Below are positions 16,683 to 17,960 of a stretch of DNA of 33,595 bases, one piece after another. The notes under the pieces were generated by a model. The model saw only the letters and a program-made list of their open reading frames with translations. It searched no databases and had not been told where the DNA came from. The stretch is from Pseudomonadota bacterium (lineage in GTDB: Bacteria; Pseudomonadota; Alphaproteobacteria; Micavibrionales; Micavibrionaceae). Made by a program: the position numbers and the translations under genes. How positions within the stretch are numbered: the first letter of the stretch is position 1; every line of letters begins with the position of its first letter. The stretch is from assembly GCA_963204825.1 (NCBI GenBank), contig CAUJHN010000052.1, positions 1 to 33,595 on the forward strand, read 5' to 3'.

Positions 16683-17063
16683 TTGGCCGACCTAAAAGGA
16701 TTAAAACGTATTTGCATGAGCTGCGGCGCGCGCTTTTACGATTTGAATAAGAAACCTATCATCTGTCCATCCTGCAAAACGGAATTCACGGGCGAGATTA
16801 AAGTAAAATCCCGCCGGGGACGCCTGCCGAGCGAAGCCGCCGAAAGCCAGATAGAGGACGACGACGCACCAGTCCTGGAAACGGAAACAGACGATATCGA
16901 GCAAGATGAAGAGACCGTCAGCCTCGAAGAGATCGAAGAAGACGGCGATGACGCCGAAGACGATCTGGAGATAGATGGCGACATCGAACTCGACGACGAA
17001 GATCTGGACGATATCGACGACGAAGATATCGATGAAGACATCGCCGAAGACGACGATAAGTAA
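16683..17063 (+). CDS. FYDLN-acid family protein (TIGR02300 type)
   Basis: A 126-aa protein of a family found in Alphaproteobacteria with unknown function. The N-terminus holds two CxxC knuckles (C11/C14 and C28/C31), a likely zinc ribbon, around the signature RFYDLNKKPI (17-26). From about residue 58 the chain is an extended acidic tail of D and E repeats. I chose the TTG at 16683 because GGAGGG stands just before it and the protein then starts where the family starts. An in-frame ATG at 16611 would add 24 residues, lacks a ribosome site and overlaps a TTGACA -35-like hexamer at 16606-16611. prmA follows 6 bases after the stop. Confidence 0.85.
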   Translation: MADLKGLKRICMSCGARFYDLNKKPIICPSCKTEFTGEIKVKSRRGRLPSEAAESQIEDDDAPVLETETDDIEQDEETVSLEEIEEDGDDAEDDLEIDGDIELDDEDLDDIDDEDIDEDIAEDDDK

Positions 17064-17069
17064 GCCGCC

Positions 17070-17960
17070 TTGTCTCTTCATACATTGAATTTGCATCTTG
17101 AAGCCGGTCTGAGCGACGATCAGACCGGCCTTTTTTCCGTTCTCTTCGATGAAACCGCTTTATCCTTTTCCTGCAAAAAAGACAAAGGCGCGTGGGATTT
17201 CTTATGGACGTTCGACGAATGTCCGGATGAAGGATTGATCGCCGCGCAATTCGAATTTATTGCGGCGGAGTTCGGGCTGAATATTTCCGCCTTTAAATAT
17301 AAAATAGAAGAACTGATCGACCGTGACTGGCTGGCCGAAAGTTATCGCGCCCTGCCCCCTTTTACCGTCGGGTCCTTCTTTATCTACGGATCGCATTATG
17401 ACGGCGCGAAGCCCGAAGGACAGATCCCACTGCTGATTGAAGCCGCAACGGCGTTCGGATCAGGCGAACACGGAACGACGTCCTGCTGCATGCTGGCGAT
17501 AGAGCATGTCAAAAACACCGGATTTCAACCCAAAAATATTCTGGATATGGGATGCGGGTCCGGCATTCTTGCCGCAGCCGCCGCAAAGCTGTGGCCTGAT
17601 ATCCCCGTTTTTGCGGCGGACAATGACCCCGAATGCATTCGCGTCACGAACCATCACCTTGCACAAAACAATATCGGTAACGTTCATGCCTATGTCAGCG
17701 AAGGCTATGACCCCGCAAGCCCTGTCTGGAAAGATGCGCCATACGATTTCATCATCGCCAATATTCTGGCGGGGCCTTTGATTGACATGGCCGTCGAGCA
17801 ATCGAAGGCGGTAGCCCCTGGCGGCTATCTTATTTTATCCGGGACGCTTCAGGAGCAGGCGGAGCGTGTTTTGAGCGCCTATACGCCGCACGGATTTTCG
17901 ACGGCCGCCGAATTTCCCGGCGATGAATGGATGACGCTTCTTTTGCACAAAAAGCCTTAA
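17070..17960 (+). CDS. prmA: Ribosomal protein L11 methyltransferase
   Basis: A 296-aa SAM-dependent methyltransferase that modifies ribosomal protein L11. FGSGEHGTT (near 130-138), DMGCGSGILAAAAAKL (SAM motif I, near 159-174) and IIANILAGPL (catalytic loop, near 227-236) identify it. The predicted start is TTG at 17070, six bases after the previous stop and without a clear ribosome site, so translation is probably coupled to the FYDLN gene. TTG codons at 17085 and 17091 are alternatives. Codons 12-23 form a complete terminator structure (separate entry). The next in-frame start-type codon after it, L56, would delete most of the N-terminal domain. The stop overlaps the convergent 182-aa gene by four bases. 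Confidence 0.92.
   Translation: MSLHTLNLHLEAGLSDDQTGLFSVLFDETALSFSCKKDKGAWDFLWTFDECPDEGLIAAQFEFIAAEFGLNISAFKYKIEELIDRDWLAESYRALPPFTVGSFFIYGSHYDGAKPEGQIPLLIEAATAFGSGEHGTTSCCMLAIEHVKNTGFQPKNILDMGCGSGILAAAAAKLWPDIPVFAADNDPECIRVTNHHLAQNNIGNVHAYVSEGYDPASPVWKDAPYDFIIANILAGPLIDMAVEQSKAVAPGGYLILSGTLQEQAERVLSAYTPHGFSTAAEFPGDEWMTLLLHKKP
17103..17136 (+). terminator. Terminator structure inside the prmA coding start
   Basis: GCCGGTCTGA (17103-17112) and TCAGACCGGC (17120-17129) form a perfect 10-bp stem around a 7-base loop, followed by C and six T (17131-17136). It lies 39 bases after the FYDLN stop but within prmA codons 12-23. It would end the FYDLN message unless ribosomes translating prmA prevent the hairpin from forming. 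Confidence 0.8.

What the first reader, a model, noticed from the sequence alone, without database searches (positions are those of the whole stretch)
17070..17150. Complete intrinsic terminator embedded in the first codons of prmA
A perfect 10-bp GC-rich stem plus six T lies in codons 12-23 of prmA, 39 bases after the FYDLN stop. The encoded residues belong to the PrmA N-terminal domain and no suitable start exists downstream, so the DNA seems to serve as both terminator and coding sequence. prmA starts with TTG and lacks a ribosome site, so its translation probably depends on ribosomes finishing the FYDLN gene. That would allow translation-dependent attenuation: a ribosome already on prmA would block the hairpin and let transcription continue.
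Basis: partly seen in the sequence, partly recalled or inferred. Interest (0 to 1): 0.6.

Follow-up and report, generated by a model that had tools for sequence, protein, structure and literature searches.

The report
Transcription terminator doubling as prmA codons
In a family of mostly uncultured, partly predatory bacteria (Micavibrionaceae), what looks like the stop signal for one gene's transcript is written inside the first protein-coding codons of the next gene, and evolution has kept both messages at once, even changing pairs of amino acids so that the RNA hairpin still folds.

Summary
The hairpin is real. A perfect 10-bp stem (17103-17112/17120-17129) plus C and six T lies in codons 12-23 of prmA, 39 nt after the FYDLN stop. 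It is not a chance by-product of the protein. In 67 Micavibrionaceae loci where prmA follows FYDLN, 25 carry a terminator at p<=0.01 against synonymous-codon shuffles, versus 0 of 24 prmA genes in other contexts. Twenty-four genomes in 11 genus groups have it at the homologous codons. Fourteen with the same register show covariation: 8 of 12 pairs changed on both sides, including second-codon-position swaps that couple amino acids (Gly/Ala versus Asp/Val). The Phe codon behind the stem is always TTT (22/22; 177:96 elsewhere). Some relatives have an ordinary intergenic terminator after FYDLN instead. Best reading: FYDLN's own intrinsic terminator, embedded in prmA, ends most transcripts and throttles prmA. 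The proposed ribosome-dependent attenuation is untested. Published E. coli data put a terminator 30 bp after a start codon at about 90% of full efficiency, so strong control by translation is less likely. It is a new variant of a known kind, the ORF-embedded intrinsic terminator. Termination itself was not measured.

The parts
16683..17063 (+). FYDLN_acid gene (start TTG, GGAGGG ribosome site), the gene whose transcript the hairpin would end
   Evidence: PF09538 E 3.2e-17, TIGR02300
17070..17960 (+). prmA, ribosomal protein L11 methyltransferase; start TTG, codons 12-23 hold the terminator
   Evidence: PF06325 E 3.5e-48; the N-terminal codons are conserved at protein level in congeners
17103..17112 (+). 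5' arm of the terminator stem (GCCGGTCTGA)
   Evidence: covariation
17113..17119 (+). loop (GCGACGA)
17120..17129 (+). 3' arm of the terminator stem (TCAGACCGGC)
   Evidence: covariation
17130..17136 (+). U-tract (CTTTTTT), in the Leu-Phe-Ser codons
   Evidence: in relatives the Phe codon here is TTT in 22 of 22

Best explanation
The hairpin is the intrinsic terminator of the FYDLN transcript, embedded in the early codons of the downstream gene prmA. RNA polymerase that has copied FYDLN mostly stops near 17136. A minority reads through and makes prmA mRNA, so the element throttles prmA relative to FYDLN. The hairpin lies 39 nt after the FYDLN stop, beyond the reach of a ribosome terminating there, and 33 nt after the prmA start, before a ribosome on prmA can normally catch up with polymerase, so termination should be largely constitutive. 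The prmA reading frame and the RNA stem are both under selection. Shown here: hairpin, U-tract, conservation, covariation, context dependence. Inferred: that it terminates transcription, how strongly, and that prmA relies on read-through.
For: Synonymous-shuffle test: 25 of 67 FYDLN-linked prmA loci at p<=0.01 (about 0.7 expected), 0 of 24 not linked. Terminator scores of -12 kcal/mol or better: 31 of 70 prmA 5' regions versus 3 of 280 gene-body segments. Covariation: 8 of 12 pairs changed on both sides, score 0.515 versus 0.266 +/- 0.029 shuffled (0/500) and 0.20 or less when slid; arms swapped between genomes pair worse (8.0-8.2 versus 10.2 of 11; 0/2000). U-tract: Phe codon TTT 22/22, p = 0.0002, so the T run is kept with the hairpin, as a terminator needs. 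Context: in other families of the order prmA is not behind FYDLN, starts with ATG in 20 of 21 and has no such hairpin; in G095 and G069, where other DNA lies between FYDLN and prmA, it is absent too. Nine of 21 assessable prmA-less relatives have an ordinary terminator 17-53 nt after FYDLN, and nine prmA genomes have an intergenic one. Geometry: maximal termination when the stop codon lies more than 27 nt upstream, and about 90% of efficiency kept 30 bp after an AUG (PMC4824070).
Against: No transcript data were available. About 26 of 67 FYDLN-linked loci show no terminator at this junction, so the element is dispensable. PrmA still has to be made, so termination cannot be complete. Relatives with the hairpin are not all independent (the tree needs 9 changes of state, 4 forced by well-supported branches). 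The termination figures come from one E. coli terminator, not from Micavibrionaceae.
Confidence: 0.77

Rival explanations
1. Translation-dependent attenuator: a ribosome that reinitiates at the weak prmA start soon enough covers the 5' arm, prevents the hairpin and lets transcription continue, so prmA is transcribed only when it is being translated.
For: The hairpin is inside the ORF; starts are weak and adjacent to the FYDLN stop; in the pyrBI leader a translating ribosome does this (discussed in PMC4824070).
Against: A terminator 30 bp after an AUG lost only about 10% of its efficiency to translation in E. coli; ribosomes catch up with polymerase after about 100-200 nt (PMC4824070). Weak starts are as common without the hairpin. 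No antiterminator fold was identified.
Confidence: 0.15
2. The hairpin serves translation or RNA stability (a stem behind a weak start that slows or positions the initiating ribosome, or protects the FYDLN 3' end), not termination.
For: Start-proximal position; weak or missing canonical starts.
Against: The T run is kept as well (TTT 22/22), and relatives carry ordinary hairpin-plus-T terminators outside the gene.
Confidence: 0.05
3. By-product of a conserved protein motif (AGLxxDQAGLF) that happens to be palindromic at RNA level.
For: In the window alone the shuffle p-value is only 0.008, because protein and codon usage favour pairing.
Against: The stem persists with different peptides (RIPSDFTKDQVGYF, NLPEAVSEESLAAF, ILPATLSNIEVAVF), p = 0.001 in several genera, covariation against chimeras and shuffles, absent where prmA is not behind FYDLN.
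Confidence: 0.03

Closest known systems
Intrinsic (Rho-independent) transcription terminator
   Same: G+C-rich perfect hairpin followed directly by a T run, 39 nt after a stop codon
   Different: lies inside the coding sequence of the next co-directional gene and is shared by the reading frame
Artificial tR2 terminator in the first 100 bp of an ORF (plasmid W48, PMC4824070)
   Same: terminator about 30 bp after a start codon in a downstream cistron; geometry nearly identical
   Different: laboratory construct in E. coli, not a conserved natural element
pyrBI attenuator of E. coli (terminator inside the leader-peptide ORF)
   Same: terminator hairpin within a translated frame near its start
   Different: there the frame is a leader peptide and pausing couples the ribosome; here it is the enzyme gene itself and no sensing element is seen
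Embedded hairpin in rnpA of the same bacterial family
   Same: terminator-like hairpin at about codons 10-19 of the downstream gene, supported by synonymous shuffles in many genomes
   Different: other operon; the T run often starts a few bases behind the stem

Membership tests
Intrinsic transcription terminator | Stable G+C-rich hairpin | tested here: met
   10 bp, -19.6 kcal/mol, z -5.8
Intrinsic transcription terminator | T run directly behind the stem | tested here: met
   C + six T at 17130-17136; conserved as TTT in relatives
Intrinsic transcription terminator | Evolutionary conservation of the hairpin beyond the protein | tested here: met
   synonymous shuffles, covariation
Intrinsic transcription terminator | RNA 3' ends and loss of transcription behind it | not testable with these tools
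   no transcript data on hand; ARL-13 RNA-Seq exists (PMC3189940)
Translation-dependent attenuator (pyrBI type) | Terminator inside a translated frame | tested here: met
   codons 12-23 of prmA; frame conserved at protein level
Translation-dependent attenuator (pyrBI type) | Polymerase pause or codon element that couples ribosome and polymerase | not tested
   no tool for pausing; the leader fold shows no other strong helix, which does not test it
Translation-dependent attenuator (pyrBI type) | Read-through depends on translation of the frame | not testable with these tools
   needs reporters with start-codon mutants
Amino-acid-type attenuator with antiterminator | Mutually exclusive antiterminator hairpin | tested here: inconclusive
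   the leader fold shows only the terminator as a strong helix; no comparative search for an alternative was made

The most novel reading that the evidence does not exclude
prmA carries its own attenuator in its coding sequence: transcription continues only if a ribosome reinitiates behind FYDLN in time, so that synthesis of this ribosome-modifying enzyme reports on translation capacity, and the lineage uses coding-sequence terminators (prmA, rnpA) as a general way to tune genes of the translation apparatus.
Probability: 0.15. Interest if true: 0.75.

Novelty: new variant of a known kind. Interest (0 to 1): 0.52.

Why it matters
Terminators predicted inside genes are usually set aside as noise. 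Here comparative evidence shows one that selection has kept inside an enzyme's codons across a bacterial family, strongly enough to couple amino acids through RNA base pairs. It gives a natural, testable case of how bacteria could set unequal expression of two adjacent genes without intergenic DNA, and a warning that protein covariation can come from RNA structure.

Tried and rejected
Repeat or uptake-sequence origin: one copy in the genome. Known RNA family: only a sub-threshold sX6 hit (16.4 bits, gathering 40). Internal prmA promoter: no promoter-like + strand site near 17070-17200 (weak evidence). Downstream prmA start: my simple gene caller placed the G038 start at an ATG behind the hairpin, but that codon is not conserved and the residues before it are. 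Hairpins at codons 20-32 in genus g29 (L023, L037, L040, L044, L055) have weak T runs and are not counted as the same element. Embedded hairpins in holC and folC of G038/G039 are not conserved in the family. E. coli rnpA, recalled from memory as having an early terminator, gave no terminator-like site in the scan, so it is not used as precedent. Literature searches found no report on this junction; most subscription journals are not held.

Full report
Observation. The sequence holds exactly what was described: stem 17103-17112/17120-17129, 7-nt loop, C and six T to 17136, -19.6 kcal/mol and no shuffle as stable. The upstream gene is FYDLN_acid (16683-17063) and the downstream gene PrmA (17070-17960). 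The hairpin starts 39 nt behind the FYDLN stop and 33 nt behind the TTG of prmA. It is unique in the genome.

Lineage. The genome is a 1.94-Mb draft. Relatives found by PrmA are Micavibrio and Alphaproteobacteria MAGs, and G039, with 2,481,983 bp, has exactly the length reported for Micavibrio aeruginosavorus ARL-13 (PMC3189940). I therefore call the family Micavibrionaceae; the name is inferred from these titles, not printed by a tool.

Relatives. I oriented 70 prmA loci of the family and 21 from other families of the order. In 67 of the 70, prmA lies directly behind FYDLN. Four arrangements occur: a terminator embedded at the homologous codons (24 loci, 11 genus groups); one overlapping or just behind the start (3); a classical intergenic one (9); none recognised, or only a doubtful later hairpin (31). 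This classification was partly by hand. The shuffle and gene-body statistics below use fixed rules.

Tests. Permuting synonymous codons within each gene keeps protein and codon usage. 25 of 67 linked loci have a better terminator than 99% of their shuffles, 0 of 24 unlinked ones do; the window itself has p = 0.008. Of the 25, one (L068) has its hairpin before the ATG, three overlap or adjoin the start and two are of the later type. Gene bodies rarely reach comparable scores (3 of 280 segments against 31 of 70 5' regions). In 800 kb of G038, terminators of -15 kcal/mol or better were intergenic in 195 cases, in sense gene bodies in 3 cases (about 634 kb), and in or over the first 90 nt of 666 genes in 3 cases, plus prmA, whose start my caller misplaced.

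Covariation. Fifteen loci share the pairing register of the window. Their arms pair at 10.2 of 11 positions, arms from different genomes at 8.0, and no permutation of 2000 reached the observed mean. On 14 of them 8 of 12 pairs show changes on both sides, score 0.515 against 0.266 in shuffles. The loci were chosen for having the hairpin, which inflates the percentage paired but not the changes on both sides. In this register second codon positions pair with each other, so Gly-Ala (GGC/GCC) alternates with Asp-Val (GAC/GTC): an amino-acid covariation made by RNA. The Phe codon at the T run is TTT in 22 of 22, against 177 TTT to 96 TTC in the rest of the same genes.

Context. Where prmA is not behind FYDLN, the hairpin is missing. 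Of 21 assessable FYDLN loci in genomes without a full prmA, 9 have an ordinary terminator of -12 kcal/mol or better 17-53 nt after the stop, overlapping the range in which the embedded ones start (30-60 nt, one at 73). This suggests that the element is FYDLN's terminator. On a PrmA tree built without the N-terminal region the embedded state needs 9 changes, 4 of them forced by well-supported branches: it has come and gone repeatedly.

Mechanism. A study in E. coli measured a terminator against ribosome position (PMC4824070): a stop codon more than 27 nt upstream allows full efficiency; a terminator 30 bp after an AUG keeps about 90% of it, because ribosomes catch up only after 100-200 nt. The window has 39 and 33 nt. 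A largely constitutive terminator with limited read-through is therefore the best reading. Weak starts of prmA go with FYDLN linkage rather than with the hairpin and fit translational coupling.

Limits. No transcript was measured. MAG sequences may hold errors. Related genomes are not independent. The hairpin classes rest on simple energy rules. A terminator that ends messages inside a translated frame would make non-stop messages; how the cell deals with them is unknown.

Noticed in passing
L299-L328; window genome L305 (G000:C103:8444-8785): rnpA of Micavibrionaceae carries a terminator-like hairpin at about codons 10-19 (e.g. GGCCGCCTGAAAAGGCGGTC TGATTTTTTG, encoding GRLKRRSDF), in most of 30 loci, many at p<=0.01 against synonymous shuffles.
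   Followed up: partly
L003, L004, L022, L026, L027, L049, L052, L064, L065, L071: FYDLN-linked prmA genes with no ATG/GTG/TTG between the FYDLN stop and the conserved N-terminus; several have CTG or ATT/ATA where homologues have TTG, suggesting non-canonical starts.
   Followed up: partly
most of genus g3 (G003-G012), G016, G027, G029, G049, G057, G082-G084, G099-G102 and others: Many genomes of the family give no PrmA match or only a weak one to other methyltransferases, so prmA seems to have been lost several times; FYDLN stays.
   Followed up: partly
L239, L240 (holC) and L269, L270 (folC): In G038 and G039 holC (behind a leucyl aminopeptidase gene) and folC (behind accD) have strong hairpins at about codons 13-23, not conserved in the family.
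   Followed up: yes
G000:C57:4901-6148 and folC of G041, G015, G007, G009, G010: The folC match contains one in-frame stop codon in several draft genomes.
   Followed up: no
L216 (G095), L218 (G069): Other DNA lies between FYDLN and prmA; FYDLN then has its own intergenic terminator and prmA an ATG start and no hairpin.
   Followed up: yes
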